Source: Alphaproteobacteria bacterium (GTDB lineage: Bacteria > Pseudomonadota > Alphaproteobacteria > Thalassobaculales > Thalassobaculaceae). Taken from it: a stretch of DNA of 64,000 nucleotides. The stretch is from NCBI GenBank assembly GCA_022822665.1, contig JAJEAR010000012.1, positions 186,001-250,000 on the forward strand. Reading direction: 5' to 3'. The notes under the pieces were generated by a model, which did no database searches, was not told where the DNA came from, and worked only from the letters and a program-made list of their open reading frames with translations. Shown piece after piece: positions 15,219 to 35,310 of this stretch (its first letter is position 1; each line of letters begins with the position of its first letter). Made by a program: the position numbers and the translations under genes.

Positions 15219-16523
15219 TCAGTCGGCGTCGAGCCCCGGATAACATCCGAGACCCTGGGCAATCTGGGCAAAGCTGGTGAGCGGAAACACCGCTCGGGTC
15301 CGCATCCAGTCCTCCCTGTCCACCACCTCCCGGTTGATCAGTCCGACCATGTCTTCGAACCTTCGCAGCGCATCGCAGTCCACCGCCGCGGGATCGCCGA
15401 TGTGACGGTACGTCGGCCATGCCCGGTCGCGGGCGTATCGCCAGAATTCGCTGTCGTACCTGGAGCCGCAACTGTAGTGCCAGCCGACGAACAGTCCGCA
15501 GCAGAGCATGGAACTGACGAGAAACCGGTTGATCACGGGCGCATCACGTTCCCGGTGCTCCGCGGGCCGGTTGAAACGCGCCTGCAGGATCATCCCGACC
15601 TGCAGCTGGGCGAGCATGATCGCCGTCGCCTCGAGGGGCTCGAAGAAGCCCGCGGCATTGCCAATGCGGGCCACCGCGCCATCGTAGACACGGCGATGCA
15701 CGAAATTGGGAAACGGAATGACCGCGCGCGGCTCGAATTCCGTCACTCCGTCCTGCGAAAGCAGCGTGTCGAAGTCCCGTTCCACATCGGCCCGGTCCGA
15801 CACCTCACGGTTGAAGATGTAGCCGTAGGACGTGTGTGACGTCAGCGGGATCACGAAAACCCAGCCGTGGGGACGGGCAACCGCGCGGGTATAGGTCGGG
15901 CGCAGGACCGGACCGCTGCGCCCCGCACCGATGACCGCCGGACAACGACGGATGATCGCGGTGTTGGTCGGAATGAACGACACATCGATGTGGCGACCGG
16001 GATGAAGGTCCGCCGGGCCCGGGAACCCCCGGGCATCAAGGACCAGATCGTAGTGTTCCGCCGCCCGCCCCTCGAATTCCACCCGCGCTCCATCCTCCGT
16101 CTTCGTGACATCGAGGACCCTGGCGTCGATGTGCCGTGCGCGTGACCCTTCACGGAGCAGGTCCGCCAGGCAGTCGGCGGACAGGTGGTAGGCGTACGAC
16201 ACCTGTTGCGGCGAGAAGTAGTGGCAGAAGTCCCTGCCGAGGCTTCCCCACCCCTCGTAGGCAATGCCGTACTTGCGGGTTCCGTTCAGGCGTTGCTGGA
16301 TGACCTGGTGGGACAGGCGGGTCAGCTTGTGCAGGTCCTGGACCAGGCTCGGCCAGCTGCCCTCGCCGACGCCGATGACGGGTATGCGCGAATCAAAAAT
16401 GTGGTCCAGTTCGCAGTTCCCGTCGGGGTCATGCCCGGCGACATTCGCAACGGCGAGGGATCCCGCGGTTCCTCGCCCGATCACCGCAATCCGGCGCAGC
16501 GACCCGGCGCCTGGCTGGATCAT
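15219..16523 (-). CDS. tryptophan-halogenase-family flavoenzyme of the RiPP cluster
   Basis: A 434-aa FAD-dependent protein of the tryptophan halogenase family, which uses reduced flavin, oxygen and halide to halogenate aromatic rings. The FAD motif is VIGRGTAGS near residue 14, followed by IPVIGVGEGSWPSL as in halogenases. A Lys in the GTRKYGIAYEGW stretch (about residue 84) aligns with the catalytic lysine, and GNAAGFFEPLEATA matches the substrate/FAD loop. The usual W-x-W-x-I-P signature is present as WVFVIP, with the second Trp replaced by Phe. The precursor core in the same cluster ends in Trp, so peptide tryptophan is the obvious candidate substrate. A flavin monooxygenase role without halogenation is the alternative. 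No flavin reductase is nearby. Confidence 0.78.
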   Translation of the reverse strand: MIQPGAGSLRRIAVIGRGTAGSLAVANVAGHDPDGNCELDHIFDSRIPVIGVGEGSWPSLVQDLHKLTRLSHQVIQQRLNGTRKYGIAYEGWGSLGRDFCHYFSPQQVSYAYHLSADCLADLLREGSRARHIDARVLDVTKTEDGARVEFEGRAAEHYDLVLDARGFPGPADLHPGRHIDVSFIPTNTAIIRRCPAVIGAGRSGPVLRPTYTRAVARPHGWVFVIPLTSHTSYGYIFNREVSDRADVERDFDTLLSQDGVTEFEPRAVIPFPNFVHRRVYDGAVARIGNAAGFFEPLEATAIMLAQLQVGMILQARFNRPAEHRERDAPVINRFLVSSMLCCGLFVGWHYSCGSRYDSEFWRYARDRAWPTYRHIGDPAAVDCDALRRFEDMVGLINREVVDREDWMRTRAVFPLTSFAQIAQGLGCYPGLDAD

Positions 16524-16672
16524 TGCAGGAACTCCGGAACCACCTGCCGCTCACCCGTGCGCCTTCGCCTCATCGTGAATTCCTCGCATCCGTCGTGCCC
16601 GGTCTCCACGGGCGGGTCTGCGTACCGGTACCGCCCAGCCTCCCGCACGGTGCGGGCAACGGGCACGCATGT

Positions 16673-17905
16673 TCACAGGCCGAGCGCGAATTCCACGCCG
16701 AGGAAACTGTCACGCCGTCCGTCGTAGGCCAGGTCCTGCCGGTCCGTGCACAGGTAGACGATCGCTTCCAGGCGCATCGTCCATCTCTCCGCCAGCCGGC
16801 GGGCGAATTCCAGGTTCATCGTCCGGGAAGCGTAGCGCAGGTCACCCTGCATGCCCGCCACGATCTCCGTGCTGCGGGCATCGTTCAGCGCGAGCACGCC
16901 CATCACGAACAGGTCGTTCGCCCAGGGGCCCGTCGCGCGCGAACCGCGGGCGTCGTAGTGCCACTCGCCAAGCAGGGTCAGGTCCGCCACCGATCCGAAC
17001 ACGGCGCCAAAGGTGCGTTCCAGACCGACGTTGAAGGCGATGTAGTCCTGCTCCCGGCCGAGGAGATTGCGCGACCCGGCACGGTGGATCGCTTCCGCCT
17101 TGTAGAGCCAGGGGTCGGTCGTGAGCTGCGCATCGATCCCGAATTGCCGGATCTGTTCGTAGTAGGGGACCAGGGGCGCATCGATCGTTGCCGGCGCATC
17201 GGTCCGGGGGCTGACGAGGAATGCCGGTTCACGGCTCGTTCCGATGAAGGCGCCAAGCCCGATGTCGAGCGGGCCCACGGCATTGCTGTAGCGAAACGCG
17301 AGGTCCGGGTGAAATTCCTCGGCATCGCTCTCGTACAGCGCATCCTTGCTGATCGTGCGGCCCGACCTGTGGCGTCCGGTACGTCCGGGAAAGGTACGCG
17401 CGCGGTGATAGGGCAGGAGAAAGGTCTCCGCGATCCCCCAGTCACCCGAGATCGTCAGGTGTGCCATGGGCTGGCCCAGCTTGGGCCTGTCACGGGGATG
17501 CCCCAGCTGGTCCAGCTGGTTGATGATGTCCACGAGGTTGTTCAGTTCCGCCACCCCCCAGAACACCTGGTCGATCCCCAGCCGGAGCTCCCAGGAATCC
17601 TCGTCCCAGTCCCCGTACATCAGCATGTAGGCTTCGCGCAGGTCCGCCTGTGTGCGCCTCGGATCGGCGCTGTCGTAACGAAACTGCGGGGTGACGGTGA
17701 AGCTGGTCGCTTCGGCGGCCTCCCAGTACAGGCCAGGTTCGACCACGAGCCCGCCTGCGCGCGAACGCTGTTCCGGGAAGGCGGGTGACTGGGGATACCA
17801 CCGCGCCTGGAACCGGACGTCACCCGACAGGTCGAATGCCCGCGCCTCGGCACCGCCGGCTGCCGCAAGCAGCAGGGCCGCGAGCGCACACCGGACACCC
17901 ATCAC
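16673..17905 (-). CDS. outer-membrane beta-barrel protein (DUF1302-like)
   Basis: A 410-aa exported protein. It has a signal peptide (MMGVRCALAALLLAAAGG, cleavage near EARA) followed by alternating polar/hydrophobic strands such as SFTVTPQFRYDSAD and SWELRLGIDQVFWG, as expected for a barrel. I infer it to be an outer-membrane barrel of the kind that accompanies RND/LolA-like export systems. Its ATG overlaps the stop of the LolA-like gene by four bases, so they are coupled. The C-terminus is Leu rather than the usual Phe. Confidence 0.6.
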   Translation of the reverse strand: MMGVRCALAALLLAAAGGAEARAFDLSGDVRFQARWYPQSPAFPEQRSRAGGLVVEPGLYWEAAEATSFTVTPQFRYDSADPRRTQADLREAYMLMYGDWDEDSWELRLGIDQVFWGVAELNNLVDIINQLDQLGHPRDRPKLGQPMAHLTISGDWGIAETFLLPYHRARTFPGRTGRHRSGRTISKDALYESDAEEFHPDLAFRYSNAVGPLDIGLGAFIGTSREPAFLVSPRTDAPATIDAPLVPYYEQIRQFGIDAQLTTDPWLYKAEAIHRAGSRNLLGREQDYIAFNVGLERTFGAVFGSVADLTLLGEWHYDARGSRATGPWANDLFVMGVLALNDARSTEIVAGMQGDLRYASRTMNLEFARRLAERWTMRLEAIVYLCTDRQDLAYDGRRDSFLGVEFALGL

Positions 17906-18798
17906 CGCACGCGTCGAAGCGCGGGCCGGGTGAACTCGCTGTCCCGGAGATTGTTGCCGAAACTGAGCTGGTTCCAGTCGAGCACCGTGCGCGCACCGGT
18001 CAGGTGGTTTTCCATCGTCTGTCGTTCCGCCCGCCAGTACCGGCCCGCGTATTGCCGATAGTTCTCGAAGGTCAGTGTCTTCAGATGCGAACCCTTCCGG
18101 TCGTAGAGTTCCATTTTCCAGGTCCGAAGATGGTCCACGTCCCGCCAGACGATCTTGCGACTGTATCCGGACCGCTTGTCCAGGGGGACCTGCTCCGTGA
18201 CCGTACAGGTAAGCTCGCCGCAGGGCTCGTCACGGAGAAACCTGTAGACGTACTCTTCCACCTGCGAAGAGCTCATGTCCTCGTAGGAAAACTCGCTTCC
18301 CATGAATGATCCCGATCTCCGTGCGGCATTGATGCGCTTTACCCTCCTGAGGGCCGGCAGATACAGCCACTGGTCATCCGGGGCGTTGACGTGGGCATGG
18401 GTCAGCAGCGCGGTTCCCTGGACATCCCGCGGCTGATCGAACACGAACAGGCTCTTGTCGCCGTTCTCCTGCACCTCCAGCACCTTGACGCGCATCTGGC
18501 GGACGCTTTCCCGGCCCTGCCGGTCGCGCAGCACCATCGTCATGACGGCAGTGAAGTCCGCGAAGCCATCGTCCCGCTCGCTTGCCTCGCGTGCGATCCT
18601 GAGGCCCTTTTCCTCCGGCGCTTCCGCCAGGCACGGCGCCGGTGCATACGCCGGGAAGAAGCAGGTCATGGCCAGGAACAGGGAAGCGGCCGCAACCTTC
18701 CGCGCACCCGGGGAGATCCCGGCCGGGGCCCGCCCGGCACCACCGCTCCTCCCGGTCCGGCAGCCGGCTGCCATCCGAAAGCACTCCGTAGCGCGCAT
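17902..18798 (-). CDS. LolA-like outer-membrane lipoprotein-sorting protein
   Basis: An exported periplasmic protein (up to 298 aa from this ATG) resembling the outer membrane lipoprotein-sorting (LolA-like) family. Typical stretches are ADFTAVMTMVLRDRQGRES, WLYLPALRRVKRI and SFMGSEFSYEDMS, and ELYDRKGSHLKTLTFENYRQ. A hydrophobic segment (VAAASLFLAMTCFFPAYA) some 40 residues in serves as signal peptide. The start is uncertain: ATG at 18798 or at 18774 are both possible, and the open frame continues further upstream without coding character. Such proteins frequently accompany MMPL/RND exporters, one of which lies at 32914-35310. They bind hydrophobic cargo in the periplasm. Confidence 0.72.
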   Translation of the reverse strand: MRATECFRMAAGCRTGRSGGAGRAPAGISPGARKVAAASLFLAMTCFFPAYAPAPCLAEAPEEKGLRIAREASERDDGFADFTAVMTMVLRDRQGRESVRQMRVKVLEVQENGDKSLFVFDQPRDVQGTALLTHAHVNAPDDQWLYLPALRRVKRINAARRSGSFMGSEFSYEDMSSSQVEEYVYRFLRDEPCGELTCTVTEQVPLDKRSGYSRKIVWRDVDHLRTWKMELYDRKGSHLKTLTFENYRQYAGRYWRAERQTMENHLTGARTVLDWNQLSFGNNLRDSEFTRPALRRVR

Positions 18799-19209: not shown

Positions 19210-19228
19210 ACCCCCCAATTCAGGGGGT
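19210..19228 (+). promoter_or_regulatory. hairpin in the precursor 5' region
   Basis: A six-base-pair inverted repeat (ACCCCC / GGGGGT) with a seven-base AT-rich loop sits about 95 bases before the precursor start. It could be an operator, an attenuator or the end of an upstream transcript. A TTGACA hexamer follows at 19259-19264, but no well-spaced -10 box is visible, so the promoter is not assigned. Confidence 0.35.
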
Positions 19229-19321
19229 ATACTTGCGCATTGACCGTGGCTGATGATTTTGACATGTTCGCGCCAATGCAATCGGCTAGCATCGTTCTGT
19301 ATCGCGTTGAGGAGTATTGCA

Positions 19322-19573
19322 ATGAAAAGTGGCGACGAAATGCTGCAGCACATTGTCGAGAAGTCCGGACTCGATGCGGACTTCAGGCAGCAGCTTCTGG
19401 AAGATCCAAAGGCAACCATCAGCGCGGAACTGGGTATCACCATTCCCGATTCCATGACCATCAAGGTCCACGAGAGCGACATGCAGACCGTTCATCTCGC
19501 GTTGCCGCCGGACCCGAACATCACCGAGGAACAGCTCGAGGCGATCTCGGCCGGTCTCTGCTGCTGCTGGTAG
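19322..19573 (+). CDS. NHLP-family RiPP precursor peptide with five-residue LCCCW core
   Basis: An 83-aa precursor of the nitrile-hydratase-like leader peptide (NHLP) family. The ATG at 19322 follows a GAGGAG ribosome site with 7-base spacing. The leader (residues 1-78) contains DADFRQQLLEDPKATI, ELGITIP, IKVHE and HLALPP, all typical of NHLP. It ends in QLEAISAG: Leu at -7, Ile at -4, Ala at -2 and Gly at -1 fit cleavage by a C39 double-glycine peptidase. The remaining core is Leu-Cys-Cys-Cys-Trp (79-83). The gene is transcribed opposite to all other genes of the cluster. Three adjacent Cys suit the YcaO cyclodehydratase nearby, and the terminal Trp suits the halogenase. The core is far shorter than usual for this family, yet the stop codon is clean and the leader intact, so truncation by frameshift is unlikely. 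Confidence 0.9.
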   Translation: MKSGDEMLQHIVEKSGLDADFRQQLLEDPKATISAELGITIPDSMTIKVHESDMQTVHLALPPDPNITEEQLEAISAGLCCCW

Positions 19574-19574
19574 A

Positions 19575-19676: not shown

Positions 19677-20789
19677 TCATGGCCGGGCCGCACCCGAGAG
19701 CACGATAAATATGTACGCCTTGGCCTGCCGGAGCCGGTCCCCGGACATGACCAGCTTGATGTGGTGAATACCGCGCAGCATCACGTACCGCCCGGACTTG
19801 CCGAAGAGCAGTGACGGCCTGGCAACCCAGTTGCCGAGCGCGTCGAGCTTTTCCCGGACCACGATCTCCTCAAGCCGCAGGGCATCCAGGAACGGATCCC
19901 AGTCGGTCAGGCCATCGAGCCAGTAACGGGAGTCCTTCGTGTATCGCTGCCTGACGATCAGCGTCAGGCCGAGCGTCGGGCCGACACCGTCTTCCAGAAC
20001 GTCGATACTCGTCCCCGACCTGACAACGTTCGCGCGTTCCCTGAAACGCTCGATCACCGACCCGACGGCCGGGACATCGCCCGGCCAGCCGATACCCTCG
20101 AGATACGAACCGACGTCGCGGCTCGACCTGAAGCCCATGATGGCCAGCCTGAGCGCGCGGGAACGCGACGGAAATATCCCGAAGGAGTCCATTCGCGTGT
20201 CGGCAGGCTGCATCGAATGGGCGCGTTCGACGTTTCCGCGTTCACCGGCGGTCATTTCCCAGCCGACGCAGGAAAAGAGCGCGTCGGCCACCGTGCCGAC
20301 ATCGGTCTGCTGACCGCCGGCACCGACGATCGGACGTTCGCCTGGCCTGAGGAACAGCCCCGGAACCCGGTGCGGGAGCGACCGTGCAATGTCGTACTCC
20401 AGCATCACCTTTCTTCCGACGATCTCGCGCAACGGCGAGAACCCGGCGTCCATCCGTTCGAACAGCCGCACAAGTGCGCCCGCGGTCCCGTCCGTCCGGT
20501 CGGCTCTCGCCCGCTGCTCAAAGAACTTCGCGGCTTTGGTTCCGCTGGTGAGCGAGACGCCCAGATCCGCCTCCGGGCTGCGTTCATGCAGCGGAAGTTC
20601 AAATCCGAACGGAAACGCGCCCATGGTGATCGGGAGCCTGTCGGCGCACTCGAGCACGCGTTCCCACTCCCGGTCTCCGATGAGAACCGGCGGGATCCTG
20701 TTCCGGAAGTGTCCGAGCAACTCGCCCATGCTGCCGCCTTCCCCGGCAAGACGGTCCTGGACACGCACGAGTGCCTCGTCGATTTCCAT
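19677..20789 (-). CDS. uncharacterised RiPP-cluster protein (370 aa)
   Basis: A 370-aa soluble protein that I do not recognise. It has no signal peptide, membrane segment, P-loop or Rossmann motif. Visible stretches include ITMGAFPFGFELPLHERSPE near the N-terminus, FGIFPSRSRALRLAIMGFRS in the middle, and GIHHIKLVMSGDRLRQAKAY near the C-terminus. The last, ending in a KAY motif, is only weakly reminiscent of aromatic prenyltransferase barrels, which I would not assert. It begins nine bases after the cyclodehydratase stop and converges on the precursor gene, so it is part of the biosynthetic operon and probably a modifying enzyme or scaffold for this peptide. Confidence 0.75.
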   Translation of the reverse strand: MEIDEALVRVQDRLAGEGGSMGELLGHFRNRIPPVLIGDREWERVLECADRLPITMGAFPFGFELPLHERSPEADLGVSLTSGTKAAKFFEQRARADRTDGTAGALVRLFERMDAGFSPLREIVGRKVMLEYDIARSLPHRVPGLFLRPGERPIVGAGGQQTDVGTVADALFSCVGWEMTAGERGNVERAHSMQPADTRMDSFGIFPSRSRALRLAIMGFRSSRDVGSYLEGIGWPGDVPAVGSVIERFRERANVVRSGTSIDVLEDGVGPTLGLTLIVRQRYTKDSRYWLDGLTDWDPFLDALRLEEIVVREKLDALGNWVARPSLLFGKSGRYVMLRGIHHIKLVMSGDRLRQAKAYIFIVLSGAARP

Positions 20790-25622: not shown

Positions 25623-26924
25623 TCACCCGTTCAGGATTTCGACGAGACGTTCCAGAGCTTCGATACAAAACGCGGAAGTTATCGCTTCAGAACCGTGGCC
25701 GATTTGCCCGACCAGTCCCCACTTTGCCGACTGGTCCCCGAATGCCAGAAGTTCCGGCCAGCTGCCGTCTTCCCGTTGTGAATGTTGCAGGACATTCAGG
25801 TAGTGTTCGGGATCAATCCTCTCAAGACAACCGATATTGTAGAGAGTCGACACCGCCTGGGCTGTATGAAGGACGGTTCCGAATTCTCCCTGTTGATCAC
25901 GCAAGGCGAGAACGTGTTCGGCGAGCATCGGACGAATGCGGGCAAGCGCGGGTGACGCACGTACCATGGCACGGGAAATCGCGTAGCAGATCGCGACCGT
26001 ATCGGGGTACCACCGCGACGAATCCTCGAGCCGTCCGTTCATGACCAGGCTTTCCAGCCACCGCTGGGCATCCCTAGTTTCGGGGCGATCGCCAAGGAAG
26101 GCAATGACATTCGCATTGACGACGGGGTCGGCCTCGATGCGGAAGCGCGAGACGACATCGGGTTCGCCATCGTCCAGGATCCAGGTCAGGAACCGGCCTT
26201 CCTCGTCCCGGTTCGCCAGGATCTGCGGGATGTTCCTTCCCAGCAGGACCCAGGGATGAGACCCGATGACCAGCGAACACAGTGACGTGCTGTCGAGATC
26301 CTGGGGCAGATGGCGGTAATAGCGCCACAGTCCGGGGTACTCGATGGTATCGACGAGATACGCCCTGGTCGCGGTGCGGATCCGCCGTGCACCCGCCTCC
26401 CTGCTGCTTTCAAGGGCAAGCGTGCAGAGAGCCGAAACGAACGCAGGTCGTTCGTAGTGACGTGGAACCCGTGGGTTCACGGTATTGAAACGGATGCAGT
26501 GCCAGGCCCCGTTTCCGTCGATGGTGGATTCCACGAACCCGAGACCGCGACGGATGCACTCCCTGCCGATTTCGGCAGGCGCCCGGCGGTTCGCAGCATT
26601 CGCCGCCTTGTCCGCGCCTCCGGATACGGGCGCGCGCGCGGGAGGTGCAGGATCATGGAGTGTCCTGCGAAGGAACTCCAGCGATGCCGCTCCGGCCCTA
26701 GCCGCTTCCCGTTCTGCTTCGCTGAACCTGTTGCGTGGCGGCAGTACAAGGTGCGTTGCGCGATAGGAGTCCTCGTGCACGTATATCGGATGATCCTCGT
26801 CCAGCGTCACACCCAGTTCACTTTCGATAGTCTTCCTGGGATTTTCCAGCAGACGCTTTCGAAAGTCGGTGTCTGCGCTCGCTCGCGAAACCAGGTACTC
26901 CGTCGGATCGACGGGCCTGTTCAT
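25623..26924 (-). CDS. NHLP leader fused to squalene-cyclase-like alpha/alpha toroid
   Basis: A 433-aa protein with two parts. Residues 1-78 are an NHLP leader aligning without gaps to the leader of the precursor at 19322: 30 of 78 positions match, including DFR at 20-22, ELG at 36-38, VHE at 49-51, LPP at 61-63 and the final Ala77-Gly78. Residues about 115-433 form a helical alpha/alpha toroid like terpene cyclases and prenyltransferase beta subunits. DLDSTS (209-214), DPVVNANVIAFLG (266-278) and a QW-type QREDGSW (383-389) support this. The ATG at 26924 follows a GGGAGG ribosome site. The leader may dock it on the cyclodehydratase or exporter, or the whole protein may be a peptidase substrate. 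Function is unknown. Confidence 0.8.
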   Translation of the reverse strand: MNRPVDPTEYLVSRASADTDFRKRLLENPRKTIESELGVTLDEDHPIYVHEDSYRATHLVLPPRNRFSEAEREAARAGAASLEFLRRTLHDPAPPARAPVSGGADKAANAANRRAPAEIGRECIRRGLGFVESTIDGNGAWHCIRFNTVNPRVPRHYERPAFVSALCTLALESSREAGARRIRTATRAYLVDTIEYPGLWRYYRHLPQDLDSTSLCSLVIGSHPWVLLGRNIPQILANRDEEGRFLTWILDDGEPDVVSRFRIEADPVVNANVIAFLGDRPETRDAQRWLESLVMNGRLEDSSRWYPDTVAICYAISRAMVRASPALARIRPMLAEHVLALRDQQGEFGTVLHTAQAVSTLYNIGCLERIDPEHYLNVLQHSQREDGSWPELLAFGDQSAKWGLVGQIGHGSEAITSAFCIEALERLVEILNG

Positions 26925-27039: not shown

Positions 27040-29976
27040 TCATGCAATCTGTCTCCTGACCAGATCCCTGAATGCGCCGTCGACCTCCATGAGATCGTCG
27101 AATGACCCGCTCTCGACCACCTTGCCGGCCTCCAGGACGTAGATGCGGTCGGCCCGTTCAAGCGTGGACAGCCGGTGGGCGATGACGATCCGGGTGGAGG
27201 TGAGTGCCGCGAGGTTCTCCATGACCCTGGACTGGGCTTCGTTGTCCAGCCAGTTGGTCGCCTCGTCGAACAGCATGATGCGCGCGTTGCCGAGAACCGA
27301 GCGGGCGATCATGATGCGCTGGCTCTCGCCACCCGACAGCATGGACCCATTGGTGCCGACCAGTGTCATCATGCCCATGGGAATGTCCCTGATTTCGTCC
27401 TCGACTTCGGCCAGCCTGGTTGCAGCCCAGACTTCCTCGCTCGTCACGTCATCACGGTGCCCGACCAGGTTGTCCCACAGGTCCATGGGATACAGTCCGA
27501 CCGATTGCGGCACCGTGCCGATATTCCGGCGAACCTGTTTCAGGTTCAGGTGTCTCAGATCGCGCCCGTCGTAGTACACCGCGCCGGCCCCCGGCCGGTC
27601 GATGCCGAGCGCGAGCCGGAAGAGCGTGCTCTTGCCGGCACCGGATTTTCCCGCGATCGCGATGAATTCGCCGGGACGGGCACGAATGGTCACATCGTCG
27701 AGAACCAGTGGTCCCTCGGGACCGTAGCGGAACGAAACGCGGTCGAACAGGATGTCACCGCCCAGGATTCCGGTCGGTTCTCCCCCGACTTCGGTTTCGG
27801 GGACTGCGGAGAACAGGGGGCGCATCTGATCGAAGGCCGGCAGCATGGCGGCAACGGTACCGAAGGACCCCCCGAGCCGGGAAACGGCAGACTGGAACAC
27901 GAGAAACACCGTGTAGACGACAAGAAAATCCCCGACCGGGACACGTCGCTCGCCGGTAGTCATCACCGCAATGATCAGGACCGCACAGGCAAGAAAGGGC
28001 AGCGCGTCGCCGAATGCCCGGGAGTGACCCTCGAGCGCGCCCAGTTCAATCTCCGCGCGCTTCTGCTCGCGATAATCCCGGGCCCAGATCGCATAGGCGG
28101 AACCTTCCGCGTTCTCGACGCGCAACTTGACTATTCCGCCCACGATCTGGAACAGCCGGCCGACGACACGCCGGGCGGCACCGATCATCCGTCCGTGGGC
28201 CGAAATCTGGCACAGGCCCAGGACGACAACGATCAGCAGCGAGACCAGGCTGAAGCCAAGCGCGATGGCTCCGAGAGTCGCATCGTGGAAGAAGATGACA
28301 CCGAAGACCGGGAGCAGGAAAACGATCGCGAGCAGGCTGTCAGCGACAATTCCCTGCAGGCCGTCACGAAGATTCTGGAACGTCATGCCGGACATGACGA
28401 GATCACCGGTCGAGCGGGAGTGCAGGACGCTCGACGGAAGACGCATGAGCCGGTCCCAGAAGGCGGCCTCGACCCTCGACGCCGACCGGCCCGCAAGCCG
28501 CATCGTCGCCGTGCCCTGGAGCAGGTGCAGCAGGGCTCCCAGCAGGCCGAACCCCGCGAGGGTCACGGCCACGACATAAAGTGCCCCGGCGTTTCCGCCC
28601 GATACCACATGGCTGGCGACGAACCCGAGCGCCAGAGCCGGCAGCAGCCTGACCAGCCCGCCCGAAACTCCGGCAATCACGAGTCGCGCCAGGTCCCTGC
28701 CGCATCCGTGCATCGCAATCCGCAGGAGGTCCGACGGCCCGACAGTCCCGGTCGGCAGCGGCCGGTAGAACATCCAGGCTTCCTCGCGAAGCGCGTTCGC
28801 ACGATCCCCGGTCATCCGCACGCTGCGCTTGGCTACGGGGTCGAATTGCCGGTAACGCCCGAACATTCCCGGTACCAGGGCCACGGGCCGGCCGTCTTCC
28901 TCGCGGAATCCCAGCAATGCACCGCTGTCGCCACGCCACCAGTCGGTCGCGGCGTCGAGCCGCACGCGCCGGGCCCGTATGCCTGACACGTCGAGCACAT
29001 CGACCAGGCTGTCCGCAACATCCGACGAGCCCGGGGACTCCGGAAATCTGAAATCGATCCCCTCATGGCGGCCGATGACGCGCAGGGCTTCGGCCAGGGC
29101 GGTTTCCTCCCCGTCCGCGTCCTGGTCGACCGGGAGATCGTGGATATTCATCAGCCGAAGCCGTGCGGCCCTTTCGGCGGTCCGGCGGCTGGCGGTGCGG
29201 GCACGTTCGAGATTCGCCTCGTCGACCACGGCCAGCCGCCGGTTGAGACGTTCCAGGGCGAAGGCGAGCGCGTGAAAGGACGCCAGCGCCGACTGCAACT
29301 GGCCTTGCCGGGCCAGGGTTTCGGTGGACGTGCCTGCAAGCGTCGTCTCGTGGAACAGGGTGAGCCAGCTCGTCCGCGTGAGCGGTATCGTCGCTTCGGC
29401 GTTGTTCCCGGCCCTTTCCGCGGGGTCGACGATATCCATGAACACGCTCGCACCGCCTGGCGGTCTGGATACCCAGACCACACCGCGTCGCACCGACACC
29501 GTACCGGGAGCCACGGTCCGCACCATGCCCGGTTCGGCCAGAACCGTCGGGCGCGGCAGATGGCTGGCAAGCCGCGACAGCGTATCCGTCATGGCGGTCA
29601 GCCAGGTGTCGGCCTGTTGCGCCAGTTCTTCCGGATGAACCTGCGACAGGACGGTTACCGGCAAGCGCTTCAGCACAGTGCCAGGCACGCCCTTGGCGGT
29701 GAGTCTGAGTGTGGTGCCCTCCCCGTTTCCGCCTTCGTCCGGCGCAACGCCCGGGAGCAACCAGCCCGTTTCACGGCGCAACACGTGCTGCGGCGCCGCC
29801 TGTTCCCTGCCGTCGCCGAATTCGACCATGAACAGGTTGACGGCACCGCGATCGATGAACCAGACACTGTCCGGGTCATCCAGCCTGACCGGCAGGTTGC
29901 CTGCGCACGGCACAGATACGCCGCAGCTGCCCGCAAGCTCGGCAATCGACGTGTATTCGCAGCTGTCGTCCTGCAT
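27040..29976 (-). CDS. NHLM-system ABC transporter, ATP-binding/permease (second ABC)
   Basis: A 978-aa transporter of the type found in NHLM bacteriocin systems without a peptidase. The first 430 or so residues are a non-membrane region with a cyclic-nucleotide-binding-like fold at the start and middle helices. Then come about six membrane segments (GALYVVAVTLAGFGLLGALL onward) and a nucleotide-binding domain: Walker A AGKSGAGKSTL, signature LSGGESQRIMIARSV, Walker B IMLFDEATNWLD. Its start overlaps the stop of the C39-ABC gene (TGATG). It works with the two genes upstream to move the mature peptide across the inner membrane. Confidence 0.9.
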   Translation of the reverse strand: MQDDSCEYTSIAELAGSCGVSVPCAGNLPVRLDDPDSVWFIDRGAVNLFMVEFGDGREQAAPQHVLRRETGWLLPGVAPDEGGNGEGTTLRLTAKGVPGTVLKRLPVTVLSQVHPEELAQQADTWLTAMTDTLSRLASHLPRPTVLAEPGMVRTVAPGTVSVRRGVVWVSRPPGGASVFMDIVDPAERAGNNAEATIPLTRTSWLTLFHETTLAGTSTETLARQGQLQSALASFHALAFALERLNRRLAVVDEANLERARTASRRTAERAARLRLMNIHDLPVDQDADGEETALAEALRVIGRHEGIDFRFPESPGSSDVADSLVDVLDVSGIRARRVRLDAATDWWRGDSGALLGFREEDGRPVALVPGMFGRYRQFDPVAKRSVRMTGDRANALREEAWMFYRPLPTGTVGPSDLLRIAMHGCGRDLARLVIAGVSGGLVRLLPALALGFVASHVVSGGNAGALYVVAVTLAGFGLLGALLHLLQGTATMRLAGRSASRVEAAFWDRLMRLPSSVLHSRSTGDLVMSGMTFQNLRDGLQGIVADSLLAIVFLLPVFGVIFFHDATLGAIALGFSLVSLLIVVVLGLCQISAHGRMIGAARRVVGRLFQIVGGIVKLRVENAEGSAYAIWARDYREQKRAEIELGALEGHSRAFGDALPFLACAVLIIAVMTTGERRVPVGDFLVVYTVFLVFQSAVSRLGGSFGTVAAMLPAFDQMRPLFSAVPETEVGGEPTGILGGDILFDRVSFRYGPEGPLVLDDVTIRARPGEFIAIAGKSGAGKSTLFRLALGIDRPGAGAVYYDGRDLRHLNLKQVRRNIGTVPQSVGLYPMDLWDNLVGHRDDVTSEEVWAATRLAEVEDEIRDIPMGMMTLVGTNGSMLSGGESQRIMIARSVLGNARIMLFDEATNWLDNEAQSRVMENLAALTSTRIVIAHRLSTLERADRIYVLEAGKVVESGSFDDLMEVDGAFRDLVRRQIA

Positions 29977-32186
29977 CAGCCTGACCTGATCAGCTTGTAG
30001 TAGGTGCCTTCCCGGTCAGCGGCCAGCTCGTCATGCGTGCCGCGCTGCACCTCGGCGCCCCTGTCGAGGACGACGATTTCGTCGCAATCCCGCACCGTGC
30101 TCAACCGGTGCGCGATGATCAGGCAGGTCACGCCGCGACGTCGCAGGGCTTCATCGACAAGTTCCTCTGTCGCGGCATCGAGAGAACTGGTTGCCTCGTC
30201 GAGGATGAGGACTGTCGGGTTTCCCACCAGTGCGCGTGCGATCTCCAGCCTTTGACGCTGACCGCCACTGAAGTTCACCCCGCCTTCCTCCACGAAGGTC
30301 GCGTATCCATCCGGCCTGACCAGGATTTCATCATGGATCCGGGCATCCCGTGTCGCGGCAAAGATCGCCTCGTCAGGAACGGCCGGGTTCAACAGGGTGA
30401 TGTTGTCACGCAGCGATGCAGCAAAGAGCACGATTTCCTGGTCGACCATGGAAATCGACTGGCGCAACACCTCCTCGGGAATCTCGGCCCGGGGGTATCC
30501 GTCGAACAGGACTTCCCCCGACCACGGCTGGTAGACGCCGGACACCAGCCGCGCCAGGGTCGACTTTCCCGAACCGCTGGGGCCGACCACGGCAACACGC
30601 TGCCCCGGTTCGATCGCGAGGTTCAGTCCCTTTATCAGCGGCGGGCGGCTCCTGTTGAAGCCGAAGGTGATGTTACTCAATTCCACCTGTCCCGCGAGCT
30701 TGAGCCGGCCCCTGAAAGTCGGAATCGAGTCCGAACCCGTGCTCCGGCGGCTGAAGACAGGGTCTTCCGCAGTCCGGGAAATGTCCTCGAGCCGTTGCAG
30801 GTCGGTCTCGAGTGCCTGGCGCTGGTTGGCTAACTCGAGGAACCGGTCTACAGGGGCAAGGAACATCTCCGCCAGGACATAGAACCCGACCAGGGTACCC
30901 AGGCTCATGTCACCTGACAGGACCAGGCTCCCTCCGACACCCAGGATCGCCGCGCTGCGGAGGGCGGCAACCAGGCCTGGCACCGCGGTATTGACCGAGC
31001 CCAGTTCGGAATAGAGCTGACGCGCCTGCAGTTCCCGGGCCTGCTGACCGCTCCAGCGGGAAAAGAAGCGGTCGTCCGCGGCGGTCATGCGCAGGGTATT
31101 TGCGTGAACCAGCATCTCCATGCCGATACCGATCAGGAGTCCCTGTTCGCGCCTCATCGCCTGGCTTTGAGCACTCCTGAGACCGTTGAGAACGTATCCC
31201 AGCGATCCGTGCAGAACAGCCAGAGCCAGCACGATCACGGTCAGCCAGACATCACACGCGAACATCGCGACGACCAGGACCGCGCTCATGGCCATGTCGA
31301 TGAGGAGAACAAGGAACTGGTCAGTCAGGTTCCGTGCAATCCTGTCTATCGACGAAACACGGTCCGTGACATCGCCGACCAGCCTGTTTTCGAAAAACTC
31401 CACCGGCAGTCGCAGCAGCCTGGACATGCCCTGACTGTAACCGGACACCGAAATCCGTATCGAAAGCCGTTTCAGAAACCGGTGCCTGAGCAGGGACAGC
31501 ACGTAGACGAGGATGCCGCCGCCGAGCAGGGCTGTCGCCAATCCGATCCAGGACCCGTGACCGTTCACGACATCGTCCACGAAGACGGCGAGACACGCGG
31601 GAATGACAAGCGCCAGAACCGTCAACATGAAGGCGCAGGCAACCACGCCGGTGAGCGATGTCCAGGATCCTGCCAGCACGGCGCCGAGTTGGCCGAACAG
31701 GCGAGGCGGCCGTCCGCCGGTACTGAATTGCTCTCCCCGCCTGAACCGAAGCGCAATTCCACTGAAACTTCTCCTGAACTCGTCAACAGGCACCCTGCGT
31801 CGTCCCGTCGACGGGTCATTGAGATAGAAGTAACGGCTGTCGAATCCCTCCAGGACAACAAAATGGCTGAACTGCCAGAACAGGATCAACGGAAGGTCGA
31901 GCTTTTTCAGCTGTTCCGCCCGGATGCTGAGCCCGTTGCACTCCAGCCCGTAGTGTCTGGAAGCCCGCGAAATACTCGCGGCGCTGCTCCCGTCTCGGCT
32001 GACCTCGCACTTTTCCCGCAACTCCGAAAGCGGAACCCAGCGCCCGAAATAGGCGAGGACGCTGCCAAGACAGGCCGCGCCACATTCCGAGGCCTGCATC
32101 TGCAGCATGACCGGCGTCGAGATACGCGCTTCCGACGGCTGCGCGGCGTCCCTTCCCCCGGCCCCTGCAGACCTGCGGGCCAGCAT
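29976..32186 (-). CDS. NHLM-system ABC transporter with C39 peptidase domain
   Basis: A 736-aa peptidase-containing ABC transporter. The N-terminal C39 domain shows the catalytic Cys35 in QASECGAACL, His108 in FWQFSHFVVLEGF and Asp124 in FYLNDPSTG. Six membrane segments follow, then a nucleotide-binding domain with Walker A GPSGSGKSTL, signature NFSGGQRQRLEIARAL and Walker B VLILDEATSSLD. It should cut the leader after the Ala78 to Gly78-type site (A77-G78) and export the core. The same site occurs in the toroid protein at 25623, so it too may be processed. Stop and start of neighbouring genes abut or overlap on both sides. Confidence 0.93.
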   Translation of the reverse strand: MLARRSAGAGGRDAAQPSEARISTPVMLQMQASECGAACLGSVLAYFGRWVPLSELREKCEVSRDGSSAASISRASRHYGLECNGLSIRAEQLKKLDLPLILFWQFSHFVVLEGFDSRYFYLNDPSTGRRRVPVDEFRRSFSGIALRFRRGEQFSTGGRPPRLFGQLGAVLAGSWTSLTGVVACAFMLTVLALVIPACLAVFVDDVVNGHGSWIGLATALLGGGILVYVLSLLRHRFLKRLSIRISVSGYSQGMSRLLRLPVEFFENRLVGDVTDRVSSIDRIARNLTDQFLVLLIDMAMSAVLVVAMFACDVWLTVIVLALAVLHGSLGYVLNGLRSAQSQAMRREQGLLIGIGMEMLVHANTLRMTAADDRFFSRWSGQQARELQARQLYSELGSVNTAVPGLVAALRSAAILGVGGSLVLSGDMSLGTLVGFYVLAEMFLAPVDRFLELANQRQALETDLQRLEDISRTAEDPVFSRRSTGSDSIPTFRGRLKLAGQVELSNITFGFNRSRPPLIKGLNLAIEPGQRVAVVGPSGSGKSTLARLVSGVYQPWSGEVLFDGYPRAEIPEEVLRQSISMVDQEIVLFAASLRDNITLLNPAVPDEAIFAATRDARIHDEILVRPDGYATFVEEGGVNFSGGQRQRLEIARALVGNPTVLILDEATSSLDAATEELVDEALRRRGVTCLIIAHRLSTVRDCDEIVVLDRGAEVQRGTHDELAADREGTYYKLIRSG

Positions 32187-32187
32187 C

Positions 32188-32739
32188 CTACGATCGCCTC
32201 GTCAGCAGCAGGGCGATCGGCGACCGGCTGCCTGTCTCGATGAACACCCGGCAGTTCCTGCCTGCACGGCCATCAGCGTCAAGGTCCCCGGACACGGAGA
32301 CTTCGATACGGTATATGGACACCGGCGCCATTTGCCTTCCCGTTCCGTGCCACCCGGCAGGGCGCACGGCCGAGATTTCCGCAACCTCTCCCTCGTGCGT
32401 TTCCGTTGCCCCGTTCGACGTGCCGAGCTGCACGACCGCCGGCATGCCAACCCTGATACCCGACACGGCGTCACGGTCGAGCCAGGCGATTGCCCGCACG
32501 GAGCCGTCCTGCGCATTCGAACTCCCTTCGGACGCCACCACGAAACCGTCAAGCGCAATGCTGCGGGTTACCGTGCCGAGAAACAGCCAGGCCACACCGA
32601 CAACAAGCAGCAGTGCGACGATGGCGACGAGAATACGTTCCCGCGGTGTTGAAATTGTCAGCAGTCGGTCAAGCTGCTCTCGTTCATTTTTTGCCTGTGC
32701 AACTGTATCGTGAAACGACTCCAGGGGATTGTTAAACAC
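32188..32739 (-). CDS. NHLM-system secretion protein (HlyD-like membrane fusion), short
   Basis: A 183-aa protein with one membrane segment (ILVAIVALLLVVGVAWLFLG) preceded by a cytoplasmic tail and followed by a beta-rich periplasmic region with a MPAVVQLG barrel-like stretch. It fits the NHLM bacteriocin secretion protein, a HlyD-type adaptor between the ABC transporter and the outer membrane, but lacks the long coiled-coil of ordinary HlyD proteins. The GTG at 32739 begins VFNNPLESF, where family similarity seems to start; an upstream ATG at 32829 would add 30 unlikely residues. It lies one base from the C39-ABC start. Confidence 0.75.
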   Translation of the reverse strand: MFNNPLESFHDTVAQAKNEREQLDRLLTISTPRERILVAIVALLLVVGVAWLFLGTVTRSIALDGFVVASEGSSNAQDGSVRAIAWLDRDAVSGIRVGMPAVVQLGTSNGATETHEGEVAEISAVRPAGWHGTGRQMAPVSIYRIEVSVSGDLDADGRAGRNCRVFIETGSRSPIALLLTRRS

Positions 32740-32913
32740 GTCCGGATGCTTTCTGGTTGTTGAGACCAACAAAGGGACAAATTGTTTCCTTGATGTAAAA
32801 CGGAGCCTTGTCGAACCATATGCAATCACGCCGCGGAAAGGTCAAGCGAAACCCCGCTCCTGCGGCCGGGGTACCGCTGGATCTGCGCCTTCCGACAACA
32901 ATTCGGATACCGG

Positions 32914-35310
32914 TCATGACGCCGGTCCTTCCGGACCGCCACGCGGCGCCTCACGCCGGTCCAGCGTCATGAGCAGCGCCGGCAGCAGGGACAGGTCCGC
33001 GACCAGCGCACTTGCGATGATAATCGCGGTCAGGACTCCCACCTGCGCAGTGGGGACAAACGGAGAGAACAGGAGAATGAGAAAGCCGGCCGTCAGCACG
33101 ACCGTGGTCGTGAACATGGCCGGTCCGGCCGTGTCGAAGGCGTAGCGCATCGCCGCCTCGGCGTCCTTGCCGTGCCCGTGCCGTGCGCGACGGTACTTGC
33201 CGAGAAAGTGTACCGTGTCGTCAACGACAATTCCCACGGTCATGGCCACGACGACAGACAGCGACAGTCCCACCTGCCCGACCGCCAGTCCCCACACACC
33301 CAGACCAAGCACGGCCGGAACAAGGTTGGGCACAAGGCTGATCAGGCCGAGTCGCCACGACCGCAACGCGATGAAGAGAATGGCCGAGATCGCCAGCAAC
33401 ACGACCGTCGTGCCGATCGCCATGGCCCGTATGTTGCGCTGTCCGACATAGGCAAACAGCGCCGCCGATCCCGTGCTGTTGACACCGGCGATGTCAGGTG
33501 CGTTTTCCTCGAGCCAGGCACCGGCACGGGCGTTCATCTCAAGCAGCTCCCTGGATGACAGCGTTTCAGCCGAGACCGTCACCCGTGTGGCAGACCTGGA
33601 CCGGTCGATCTGGTTGTTGAGATTGAGGCCCTCCGGAAGCGAGAGTTCGTAAAGCAGCAGGTATTGTGCCACCAGCTGCCTGTTTTCCGGAATCCGGTAA
33701 GCGGCGGGGTCGTCGCCATTCATGCTCCGGTTCAGTTGCCGCAGGGTGTCGGTAATGACCGAAACGTGCCGGACAGGAGGCTGCGCCCGGTACCACTGTG
33801 CAAAGTTTGCGACCTCCTCCAGGAAGCGGGGATCCGTAACGCCGCCCTCGACCGAAGCATGCAGCGAGTACTCGAGCAGGGTATTTCCGCTCAACCGCTC
33901 ATCCATGAAGTCCGTGTCCTGACGGAACTCGACACCCTTGTCGAAAAAATGCACCAGGACGTCGTTGAGTTCGTTGCGCGGAACGGCCAGCATCATCGCA
34001 CACACTATCCCCGCCCATACCCACAGGAGCGGCTTTCTGTACCTCAGCGTGAAATCCGCAATGACCCTCATGGAAAGCCCGGCAAGGCGGCGCGGTTTCG
34101 GTGCGCGGACCGGAAGCAGGGAGAGCAGGGCCGGCAGCAGGGTCACGGACAGCAGGAACGAGGCGATGATTCCGAACGCAACGAAATTACCGAGATGACG
34201 ATAGGGCGGCACCTCGGAAAAGTTCATGCTCAGGAAGCCGAGCGCTGTCGTGAAGCTCGCCAGGAACACCGGATTGAGGTTGAGAACGATTGATTTCACG
34301 ATGGCATCGTGTTTCGAGGCTCCGGCACGCAGGGACTGCTGAACTCCCACCAGCAGGTGCACGCAGTTGGCCACGGCAATCATCAGGATAATGGTTGGCG
34401 CCGGCGAGACCGGCGGGGAAAACGGAAATCCGATCCATATGCCGAGGCCCATCGCCGCCAGAATGGAAAGGACGATCACTGCCCCGGTCACCGCCACCCC
34501 CGCCCATCCCCTGGTCAGGACACCGAGGACCAGCGCCATGAGCAGCAGGCTCGCGGGAAGGAAGATCATCTGGCTGTTGATCGCGGCTTCCAGGAAGGTC
34601 TGGTTGACCATCACCGTGCCGACGACACGCAGGTCAATGCCCGGGAACCGCCTTTCCGCCTCCTCGGCAACCGATCTGCCGAACCCGGCAACTTCGGCCA
34701 CGGCCTCCAGCAGTCCTTCCTGCGGCAGTTCAACAGTGACGTTGACCACACTGACATCGCCATTGCGCGCCAGCAGGCTACCCGCGATACGCGGGTCGGA
34801 GGAGGCAATGGAGCGAATTCGCGCCCGCGCCTTGTCCCGGGCCAGGTCTTGCGGGTCGACGAGGTCCCGCACGTACAGGTCGTCGCCTTCTGCAGTCGTG
34901 TACTGGAAATTGGCGAGCGAATCGACACGGCGCGAATACGGTGTCTGCCACGCCCTGTCCGTCAGCCAGACGGCGGCGGCAAGTGCGCGTTCCGACGTCG
35001 CATCACCGTCGTCCGGAACAATCAGGAAGACAAGGTTCTCGTTCTTTCCGTAGGTGTTTTCCAGTTCTTCGAGGGCCAGAAGCTGGGGATTGTCATCGTC
35101 AAAGAAGATACGGTAATTGGCCGAGAATTCGATCCGGGCAATTCCGCTTGCCGCGATTGCAACCAGGAGCAGGGTGATCAGGATAATCAACCAGCGGGAC
35201 GAAATCACCCGTTCGGCAAACCGGGCGGCAAATTGACCTTCTCTTGGACTGTTGTTGTCCACAGTACAGCCGCCGCTAGTCGCGAGTTCCCGCGTGCCCT
35301 GACAGCGCAC
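32914..35310 (-). CDS. MMPL/RND-family exporter
   Basis: A 798-aa member of the hydrophobe/RND (MMPL) superfamily, with two repeats of one plus five membrane segments around large periplasmic loops. WLIILITLLLVAIAASGIARI is the first segment, and ILMIAVANCVHLLVGVQQSL and VAMTVGIVVDDTVHFLGKYR are the conserved cores of the two halves. It likely uses the proton gradient to move hydrophobic cargo to periplasmic carriers. It is the first gene of the leftward RiPP cluster, 174 bases ahead of the secretion protein, and probably works with the LolA-like and barrel proteins at 16673-18798. An alternative start is GTG at 35262. Confidence 0.87.
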   Translation of the reverse strand: MRCQGTRELATSGGCTVDNNSPREGQFAARFAERVISSRWLIILITLLLVAIAASGIARIEFSANYRIFFDDDNPQLLALEELENTYGKNENLVFLIVPDDGDATSERALAAAVWLTDRAWQTPYSRRVDSLANFQYTTAEGDDLYVRDLVDPQDLARDKARARIRSIASSDPRIAGSLLARNGDVSVVNVTVELPQEGLLEAVAEVAGFGRSVAEEAERRFPGIDLRVVGTVMVNQTFLEAAINSQMIFLPASLLLMALVLGVLTRGWAGVAVTGAVIVLSILAAMGLGIWIGFPFSPPVSPAPTIILMIAVANCVHLLVGVQQSLRAGASKHDAIVKSIVLNLNPVFLASFTTALGFLSMNFSEVPPYRHLGNFVAFGIIASFLLSVTLLPALLSLLPVRAPKPRRLAGLSMRVIADFTLRYRKPLLWVWAGIVCAMMLAVPRNELNDVLVHFFDKGVEFRQDTDFMDERLSGNTLLEYSLHASVEGGVTDPRFLEEVANFAQWYRAQPPVRHVSVITDTLRQLNRSMNGDDPAAYRIPENRQLVAQYLLLYELSLPEGLNLNNQIDRSRSATRVTVSAETLSSRELLEMNARAGAWLEENAPDIAGVNSTGSAALFAYVGQRNIRAMAIGTTVVLLAISAILFIALRSWRLGLISLVPNLVPAVLGLGVWGLAVGQVGLSLSVVVAMTVGIVVDDTVHFLGKYRRARHGHGKDAEAAMRYAFDTAGPAMFTTTVVLTAGFLILLFSPFVPTAQVGVLTAIIIASALVADLSLLPALLMTLDRREAPRGGPEGPAS

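What the first reader, a model, noticed from the sequence alone, without database searches (positions are those of the whole stretch)
15219..35310. A RiPP cluster of unusual composition built around an NHLP precursor
Seen directly: NHLP precursor, fused Ocin-ThiF/YcaO cyclodehydratase, tryptophan-halogenase-family protein, AlkB-GlnE-like fusion, NHLP-leader/toroid fusion, an unknown 370-aa protein, complete NHLM export set, and an RND/LolA-like/barrel set. Family knowledge makes this a TOMM-type pathway. The combination of membrane di-iron oxygenase, halogenase and toroid with a five-residue core is, as far as I know, not described. Inference: a small, heavily modified, halogenated thiazoline peptide exported through two membranes.
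Basis: partly seen in the sequence, partly recalled or inferred. Interest (0 to 1): 0.97.

Follow-up and report, generated by a model that had tools for sequence, protein, structure and literature searches.

The report
Brominated peptide–terpene gene cluster (srp)
This DNA carries a gene cluster of a published type, found here in bacteria of several phyla and reported from marine sponges, that encodes a five-residue core peptide; two further genes shared by most copies are predicted to be a prenyltransferase and a terpene cyclase, so its still-unknown product would likely be a brominated peptide joined to a terpene.

Summary
The precursor (19322-19573, +) ends in LCCCW, the published SrpE core. 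The halogenase has K84, Y102, PQQVS105-109 and Y110 at the numbering printed for the obligate brominase SrpI, so bromine, not chlorine, is expected.

I add a reading of two genes to which the texts I saw give no role. The 370-aa protein folds, with high model confidence, like ABBA prenyltransferases; sequence methods do not support this. The NHLP-fused toroid folds like class II terpene cyclases, and its invariant DLDS aligns with the catalytic DLDTT of drimenol synthase. With the AlkB-type oxygenase this predicts a ribosomal meroterpenoid: thiazolines, bromo-tryptophan, cyclised terpene.

LCCCW ends 64 of 68 precursors. An SrpI ortholog is in 23 of 24 genomes with LCCCW and 0 of 3 with other cores. 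No activity is shown here. Related logic is in print: NctPC and ChrPC cyclise prenyl groups on Trp, and the Moorena mpp cluster holds a brominase, an ABBA prenyltransferase, a terpene synthase and an oxygenase. So this is a new variant of a known kind.

The parts
19322..19573 (+). NHLP precursor (SrpE type), 83 aa, core LCCCW after ISAG
   Evidence: TIGR03793 E 1e-19; translation; 64 of 68 related precursors end LCCCW; core identical to the published SrpE core
20799..23153 (-). Leader-binding + YcaO cyclodehydratase (SrpC type), predicted to make the thiazolines
   Evidence: TIGR03882 E 3.6e-40, TIGR03604 E 5.3e-83; used to find the 80 loci
19677..20789 (-). 370-aa protein with predicted ABBA (PT-barrel) prenyltransferase fold
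25623..26924 (-). NHLP-leader domain fused to a class II terpene-cyclase-like toroid, DLDST motif
23150..25570 (-). AlkB-type di-iron membrane oxygenase fused to a degenerate GlnE nucleotidyltransferase domain
   Evidence: Solved AlkB 8f6t E 1.1e-49; His-box residues kept in at least 97% of 158 aligned sequences, GlnE acidic pair not kept
15219..16523 (-). SrpI-type flavin-dependent halogenase, expected Trp-6 brominase
   Evidence: PF04820 E 5.7e-46; K84, Y102, P105-S109, Y110 at SrpI numbering; K84 in 36 of 36 aligned
29976..32186 (-). NHLM-type ABC transporter with C39 peptidase; expected to remove the leader after SAG and export
   Evidence: Peptidase_C39 E 2.8e-32; TIGR03796 E 1.1e-248, 827.1 bits under the 853.3 cut-off
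27040..29976 (-). Second NHLM-type ABC transporter subunit
   Evidence: TIGR03797 E 1.2e-197, 658.6 bits under the 709.4 cut-off
32188..32829 (-). Short HlyD-like adaptor, 213 aa
   Evidence: TIGR03794 weak, E 3.8e-4; short in relatives too, median 191 aa of 40 ORFs
32914..35310 (-). MMPL/RND permease, accessory export module
   Evidence: PF03176 E 3.8e-32; 15 of 48 loci with long flanks
17902..18798 (-). LolA-like periplasmic carrier, accessory export module (start codon chosen by eye)
   Evidence: PF17131 E 3.3e-58 for the longer ORF; 12 of 48
16673..17905 (-). Probable outer-membrane barrel, accessory export module
   Evidence: weak DUF1302 E 0.024, under the cut-off; 9 of 48

Best explanation
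This is an srp-type RiPP gene cluster whose precursor carries the five-residue core LCCCW, and its product is predicted to be that peptide with three thiazoline rings, a brominated tryptophan and, proposed here, a likely enzyme-cyclised terpene on the same tryptophan. Shown here: the genes, the nearly invariant core, the match of the halogenase to the functional residues printed for SrpI, the predicted folds and the aligned cyclase motif. Shown by others on homologs: SrpC cyclodehydrates the three Cys of LCCCW (partial mixtures in E. coli), and SrpI brominates the C-terminal Trp at C6 in a leader-dependent way. Inferred: the 370-aa protein moves a prenyl group, probably C15 or C20, onto the tryptophan; the NHLP-fused toroid protonates and folds the chain with Asp211; the AlkB-type domain oxidises the terpene in clusters that have it; the C39/ABC exporter removes the leader after SAG; the RND/LolA/barrel module moves the greasy product outward. 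The NHLP domain on the cyclase is probably a leader mimic that docks it on the leader-binding part of the YcaO protein. Order of steps, attachment position and chain length are unknown.
For: srp identity: core equal to SrpE; NITEEQL at residues 66-72, where SrpE has NLTEEQL; SrpI positions. Prenyltransferase: model pLDDT 91.2; the 50 Foldseek rows and 50 VIA rows listed are all ABBA-barrel prenyltransferases. E64, D75, R214, H343, K345, K357 and Y359 stay invariant among 7 family members down to 22-27% identity. Diverged relatives sit beside other NHLP precursors: in the three cases where a precursor was seen the core holds one Trp (GFGDIDTW, WAPTNDSY, GSMLDLASAWNSLNQNS), one of them with its own Trp halogenase. 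Cyclase; PQDLDST aligns with PDDLDTT of drimenol synthase, and the entry titled D333N reads PDDLNTT, so Asp211 lies on the mutated Asp; DLDS and QxxDGSW invariant in 36 of 36. Natural variation: SrpI ortholog in 23 of 24 genomes with LCCCW and in 0 of 3 with other cores; toroid absent genome-wide from both genomes whose core lacks Trp. Precedents: NctPC, ChrPC; MppC, an ABBA-type enzyme geranylating Trp in the mpp cluster, which also has an SrpI-like brominase, a terpene synthase and an oxygenase; PalQ farnesylates a C-terminal Trp of an NHLP precursor.
Against: No activity or product is shown for the prenyltransferase or cyclase. The prenyltransferase call rests on a predicted fold: no Pfam match, no PDB sequence match at E up to 10, profile comparison with the NphB family 0.6% probability, and a local profile test matched by 23 of 200 shuffles. 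TM-scores are only 0.38-0.55. The cyclase motif is DLDST, not canonical DxDD. L079 and L078 keep the 370-aa protein (46%, 45%) although their cores LSCCM and LSCCL have no Trp, so its acceptor is not always Trp. No toroid was found in three genomes with LCCCW (L015, L056, L074); there the locus is cut by a contig end next to YcaO, so this may be incomplete assembly. L052 has LCCCW but no SrpI ortholog. SrpI works in vitro without prenylation. The SrpI peptides named there imply Lys at 80 and 135, which the window's protein lacks (Lys only at 66, 84, 141).
Confidence: 0.7

Rival explanations
1. The product is only what is already published: a brominated tris-thiazoline pentapeptide. The 370-aa protein and the toroid help in other ways, for example as substrate chaperone, leader-binding scaffold or immunity factor.
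For: Thiazolines and bromination are the only experimentally shown steps; the prenyltransferase call has no sequence support.
Against: Two separate isoprenoid-enzyme folds stand beside YcaO in most loci, one with an aligned catalytic motif, both with many invariant charged positions.
Confidence: 0.13
2. Prenyl transfer and cyclisation are real, but the acceptor is not the tryptophan (for example a Cys, Ser or the N-terminus), or the pair builds a separate terpenoid exported with the peptide.
For: Cores LSCCM and LSCCL keep a diverged 370-aa protein without any Trp.
Against: In both those genomes the cyclase and the SrpI ortholog are missing and the 370-aa protein is the most diverged of those aligned, as if its job changed. 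Three further relatives sit beside NHLP precursors whose cores hold a Trp. The NHLP domain on the cyclase ties it to leader-borne substrates. NctPC and ChrPC modify Trp.
Confidence: 0.14
3. One reading: a chlorinated, linear thiazoline peptide from an undescribed cluster.
For: A Trp-halogenase family protein is present.
Against: The cluster is of the described srp type, and the studied SrpI brominates and does not chlorinate.
Confidence: 0.03

Closest known systems
srp biosynthetic gene clusters of sponge microbiomes (SrpE, SrpC, SrpI; Nguyen et al., JACS 2021, and follow-ups)
   Same: LCCCW core, NHLP leader with xxTEEQL at 66-72, YcaO cyclodehydratase, SrpI positions K84, Y102, P105-S109, Y110
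   Different: Leu67 of the published leader motif is Ile here; Lys80 and Lys135 implied for SrpI are not Lys here. I add the terpenoid reading of two further genes. The 2021 paper is not held, so I cannot say how it annotates them.
mpp cluster of Moorena producens (MppI, MppC, MppD, MppG, MppM)
   Same: SrpI-like leader-dependent Trp brominase, ABBA-type prenyltransferase shown to geranylate a core Trp, a gene annotated terpene synthase, an oxygenase; product also cryptic
   Different: Nif11-like leader, lanthionine ring instead of thiazolines; bromine and prenyl go to two different Trp (Trp80, Trp82), whereas LCCCW has only one; no NHLP-fused cyclase in the passages seen
NctPC and ChrPC, RiPP maturases making polycyclic isoprenoid peptides (Hubrich et al., Chem 2024)
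   Same: ABBA-fold prenyltransferase (NctPC) plus MstE-like cyclase acting on Trp
   Different: There the two are one fused protein; here separate genes, with the cyclase fused to an NHLP leader domain, plus bromination, thiazolines and an AlkB-type oxygenase. Seen only as cited in a review; the paper is not held.
PalQ/PalX
   Same: Prenylation of a C-terminal Trp on an NHLP precursor, C15 accepted
   Different: PalQ belongs to the isoprene-synthase superfamily, not the PT barrel; no class II cyclase in the passages seen
Drimenol synthase AsDMS and MstE
   Same: Toroid fold; DLDTT-type motif in drimenol synthase
   Different: By their PDB titles they act on farnesyl diphosphate or prenyl-dihydroxybenzoates, not on peptides; 14-20% identity in Foldseek

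Membership tests
srp gene cluster | NHLP precursor with core LCCCW | tested here: met
   published core
srp gene cluster | SrpI-type halogenase with Lys84 and the 104-110 loop | tested here: met
   K84, Y102, PQQVS105-109, Y110 at the same numbers; the SrpI sequence itself was not available, and Lys80/Lys135 implied for it are absent
srp gene cluster | YcaO cyclodehydratase with leader-binding domain | tested here: met
   TIGR03882 and TIGR03604 over cut-off
srp gene cluster | Tris-thiazoline, 6-bromo-Trp chemistry | not testable with these tools
   needs expression and MS
NHLM export system (NCBIfam) | ABC1, ABC2 and HlyD over the curated cut-offs | tested here: not met
   827.1/853.3, 658.6/709.4, 19.5/156.2; still the best-scoring models for these proteins
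ABBA prenyltransferases | PT-barrel fold | tested here: met
   predicted model only
ABBA prenyltransferases | Sequence membership in a known family (Pfam, NphB profile) | tested here: not met
   no ABBA family among Pfam hits of 40 members at E up to 10; hhalign 0.6%
ABBA prenyltransferases | Diphosphate-binding and indole-binding residues in place | tested here: inconclusive
   E64, D75, R214, H343, K345, K357, Y359 invariant in 7 members; no residue-level structural superposition was available
Class II terpene cyclases | Alpha-alpha toroid with class II fold | tested here: met
   predicted model pLDDT 78
Class II terpene cyclases | Canonical DxDD motif | tested here: not met
   DLDS in 36 of 36, T213 in 31 of 36; aligns with DLDTT of drimenol synthase incl. 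the mutated Asp
AlkB alkane monooxygenases | Di-iron His boxes | tested here: met
   HELIHR, EHVYIHH, NYFQHYG, QRHADHH; E 1.1e-49 to 8f6t
GlnE adenylyltransferases | Nucleotidyltransferase acidic pair (GSDLD, recalled) | tested here: not met
   GVGVD here; not kept in the 8 commonest variants printed for 158 sequences nor in the 15 loci of the ~50% group printed
RiPPs with polycyclic isoprenoids (NctPC/ChrPC kind) | Fused prenyltransferase-cyclase maturase | tested here: not met
   separate genes here
RiPPs with polycyclic isoprenoids (NctPC/ChrPC kind) | Cyclised isoprenoid on a core residue | not testable with these tools
   needs product isolation

The most novel reading that the evidence does not exclude
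srp clusters, seen here in genomes titled with seven phyla, make one shared ribosomal meroterpenoid: a thiazoline pentapeptide whose single tryptophan is prenylated by a new sequence family of PT-barrel enzymes, cyclised by a class II terpene cyclase that wears its own copy of the leader domain as a docking tag, brominated, and often oxidised by an AlkB-type enzyme. All decorations meet on one C-terminal residue. It would explain why the srp product has stayed cryptic: searches for the brominated thiazoline mass alone would miss it. The same prenyltransferase family would serve further, undescribed NHLP clusters with Trp-bearing cores.
Probability: 0.6. Interest if true: 0.82.

Novelty: new variant of a known kind. 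Interest (0 to 1): 0.62.

Why it matters
The srp cluster is reported as widely shared among sponge microbiomes (2021 paper, title and recalled abstract), and none of the passages I read describes its end product. If the terpenoid reading is right, the molecule differs from the one pictured so far and has definite masses to look for: [M+H]+ 855.2754 (C15), 871.2703 (C15+O) or 923.3380 (C20) for 79Br with three thiazolines. It would also give a peptide prenyltransferase family without detectable sequence relatives among the known ones tested, and a leader-tagged terpene cyclase, both useful for attaching terpenes to peptides.

Tried and rejected
Rejected: that the cluster is undescribed; that it is an assembly accident (80 related loci); that the halogenase should chlorinate; that the GlnE domain is an active adenylyltransferase. 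In-frame TAG flags on SrpI orthologs: in the four flagged loci fetched (L094, L095, L096, L098) the reading frame ends there after a full-length protein, so no broken gene.

Led nowhere: PF11991 in the own genome (0 of 1) and in 398 genomes of the phylum (0 of 398); nothing rang in the control genomes either, so this shows nothing. Profile comparison of the 370-aa family with 33 NphB-type sequences gave no similarity, nor did a local profile test. A search with the 370-aa profile in 398 genomes gave the window and three more hits; one, L103:1183-2184 (+), is a 333-aa protein of 22-23% identity, the other two fall in 530-aa ORFs and look like chance. The window's host phylum was not settled: the nearest YcaO rows are Pseudomonadota; of the other 35 genomes of its family none has a full-length match, 7 have partial ones of 29-34%. 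The YcaO tree of 65 rows needs 10 phylum changes where 5 is the least; this hints at transfer and proves none.

Counts and dropped rows: loci are the best 80 of 274. The 68 precursors come from 67 loci after dropping ORFs over 250 aa (toroid fusions). A1 holds 40 sequences (window plus 39 of 73 loci of suitable length), A2 36 (window plus 35 of 66), A3 22, A4 33 of 120 NphB relatives listed; the halogenase alignment holds 36 and drops ORFs of 400 aa or less; the AlkB alignment holds 158 and drops short ORFs. SrpI was sought in 28 genomes, found in 24: 23 of 24 with LCCCW in the locus, L004 (no precursor seen), and 0 of 3 with other cores (L073, L078, L079). The toroid was sought in 14 genomes, found in 9; missing in L078, L079 (no Trp) and in L015, L056, L074 (LCCCW). 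The 370-aa protein was sought in 6 genomes, found in 6. 'Sponge' for the MAG loci comes from the literature and my recall of project names; record titles do not say it.

Full report
What is there. The window at 15219-35310 holds one cluster on the minus strand, with the precursor alone on the plus strand. Reading down the minus strand: MMPL/RND permease, a short HlyD-like protein, two NHLM-type ABC transporters (one with a C39 peptidase), an NHLP-toroid fusion, an AlkB-GlnE fusion, a leader-binding/YcaO protein, a 370-aa protein without Pfam match, a LolA-like protein, a probable barrel and a Trp-halogenase family protein. Some neighbouring genes overlap by a few bases (23150-23153, 17902-17905). 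The precursor is 83 aa, an NHLP leader over the model's cut-off, ending ISAG-LCCCW. In relatives the precursor gene runs opposite to the YcaO gene in 64 of 68 cases.

It is a known cluster type. Papers on the sponge srp clusters give the SrpE core as LCCCW, its three Cys cyclodehydrated by the YcaO enzyme SrpC (a mixture of partly modified products in E. coli), and the C-terminal Trp brominated at C6 by SrpI, without chlorination and only with the leader attached (PMC10858898: outline, first of nine text parts and passages; PMC10286304: passages; PMC12615548: passages; PMC10373908: passages). The window's precursor has this core, and its NITEEQL sits at residues 66-72, where SrpE has NLTEEQL. 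The window's halogenase has K84, Y102, PQQVS at 105-109 and Y110, the functional SrpI positions those passages name, at the same numbers. It is not the same protein: the digestion peptides named imply Lys80 and Lys135 in SrpI, and the window's protein has Lys only at 66, 84 and 141. The 2021 JACS paper is not held; I know its abstract only from memory. [quoted passage not shown]

How widespread and how fixed. A genome scan with the YcaO protein found 274 relatives; the best 80 were kept, with titles of seven phyla: Pseudomonadota 43, Acidobacteriota 15, Gemmatimonadota 13, Nitrospirota 3, Latescibacterota 3, Nitrospinota 2, Binatota 1. The 370-aa protein has a match over 150 aa in 76 of 80 loci, directly downstream of YcaO in 71; the toroid has one over 200 aa in 69, within 3.2 kb upstream in 67; both are adjacent in 59. 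The four loci without a long match to the 370-aa protein were followed to their genomes, and all have it. Of the 11 loci without a toroid, nine hold under 3 kb upstream; of six such genomes searched, two have the toroid elsewhere in the assembly. Among 48 loci with over 8 kb on both sides: toroid 47, some AlkB-type gene 39, halogenase 35, RND 15, LolA 12, barrel 9. LCCCW ends 64 of 68 precursors; the others are LCCCGW (L073), LSCCL (L078), LSCCM (L079) and a second precursor WCCCGN in L039.

A wider family. The genome of L079 holds two more relatives of the 370-aa protein (29%), each in its own small NHLP cluster: L106 with an NHLP precursor ending GFGDIDTW and a full Trp halogenase (PF04820 E 9e-182), L107 with an NHLP precursor ending WAPTNDSY and ABC1/ABC2. 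L109, from another genome, has one beside an NHLP precursor ending GSMLDLASAWNSLNQNS; L108 has one beside an ABC2 with a halogenase about 3 kb away and no precursor seen. So in the three cases with a visible precursor the core holds one Trp. Across seven members down to 22-27% identity E64, D75, R214, H343, K345, K357 and Y359 stay fixed. Core boundaries here are by eye, after the GG-like motif.

The oxygenase. The AlkB half matches solved AlkB at E 1.1e-49, its His-box residues kept in at least 97% of 158 aligned sequences; the GlnE half has lost the acidic pair of GSDLD (motif recalled) in the variants printed, so it is probably not a working nucleotidyltransferase. A protein search gave 856 matches; the 120 listed are 68-89% identical and 784-824 aa long.

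Natural variation as a test. SrpI was sought in 28 whole genomes and found in 24 (64-77% identity): in 23 of 24 whose locus shows LCCCW (L052 lacks it), in L004 where no precursor is seen, and in none of three with other cores, which have only distant halogenases of at most about 34%. The toroid was sought in 14 and found in 9; it is missing in both genomes whose core has no Trp (L078, L079), and also in three with LCCCW whose locus is cut by a contig end (L015, L056, L074). In L079 a methyltransferase gene lies between the 370-aa gene and the precursor. This fits brominase and cyclase both working on Trp; numbers are small and the odd lineages are all titled as Gammaproteobacteria-type groups (Pseudomonadales, Pseudohongiella). 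It also says that the 370-aa protein can have another acceptor.

Reading. The most economical account is that srp clusters make a ribosomal meroterpenoid: three thiazolines, prenylation by the 370-aa protein, cyclisation by the leader-tagged toroid, bromination by SrpI, oxidation by AlkB where present, leader removal by the C39 transporter, and in some hosts hand-over to an RND/LolA/barrel line. The thiazoline and bromination steps are shown by others for homologs; prenylation, cyclisation and oxidation are inferred from fold, motif and linkage.

What is known of the kind. NctPC and ChrPC are fused prenyltransferase-cyclases that put cyclised prenyl groups on Trp (review PMC13290415: passages and part of its reference list; the primary paper, Hubrich 2024, is not held). 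The Moorena mpp cluster, found by mining with SrpI, holds a brominase, a prenyltransferase, a gene annotated terpene synthase and an oxygenase; its ABBA-type MppC geranylates one Trp and its brominase acts on another (PMC11791876 and PMC12715784: passages). PalQ farnesylates a C-terminal Trp on an NHLP precursor (PMC10853753, passages). My searches for srp or proteusin with prenyltransferase or terpene cyclase found no paper that gives the srp cluster such enzymes (passages); that covers openly licensed papers only and not the 2021 original. So srp membership is not new, and brominase plus prenyltransferase plus terpene enzyme in one RiPP cluster is not new. What is new, if right, is that srp itself belongs to this kind, with split enzymes, a leader-tagged cyclase, a sequence-new prenyltransferase family and all decorations on one C-terminal Trp of a thiazoline pentapeptide.

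Noticed in passing
L106:5263-8255 and L107:127-7582 (genome of L079): Two further small NHLP clusters, each with a ~27-29% relative of the 370-aa protein and a core with one Trp (GFGDIDTW, with its own Trp halogenase; WAPTNDSY): undescribed in what I read.
   Followed up: partly
L108:43-8157 and L109:5275-6794: More relatives of the 370-aa protein beside an ABC2 and a halogenase (L108) and beside an NHLP precursor with Trp in its core (L109).
   Followed up: partly
L079:7833-14745: An srp variant with core LSCCM (no Trp), no cyclase and no SrpI genome-wide, a diverged 370-aa protein, and a Methyltransf_11 gene (13465-14373, -) between that protein and the precursor.
   Followed up: partly
L039:17197-21049: A second NHLP precursor ending WCCCGN just downstream of an srp cluster, followed by 843-aa and 289-aa ORFs: possibly a sister RiPP cluster.
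   Followed up: no
L011, L020, L023, L029, L030, L031, L034, L035, L045, L047, L048, L061: A 51-54% identical AlkB-GlnE paralog on the other strand a few kb away, in loci titled Gemmatimonadetes/-ota or Gammaproteobacteria; where the toroid is seen, no AlkB gene lies between it and YcaO.
   Followed up: partly
window 23150-25570: The GlnE half of the AlkB fusion is conserved (56 positions at 97% or more in 158 sequences, residues 391-806) but has lost its acidic pair: a pseudo-nucleotidyltransferase of unknown use.
   Followed up: partly
window 32188-32829: The HlyD-like adaptor is about half the length of the NHLM model (421), here and in relatives (median 191 aa).
   Followed up: partly
window 37107-42621: An IS4-family transposase stands beside the cluster, next to parB, parA and mnmG, an arrangement usual near a replication origin (recalled).
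   Followed up: no
window 11150-14985: Hydantoinase B- and A-type genes border the cluster on the low side, with polyamine-type ABC transporter genes before them (9102-11124).
   Followed up: no
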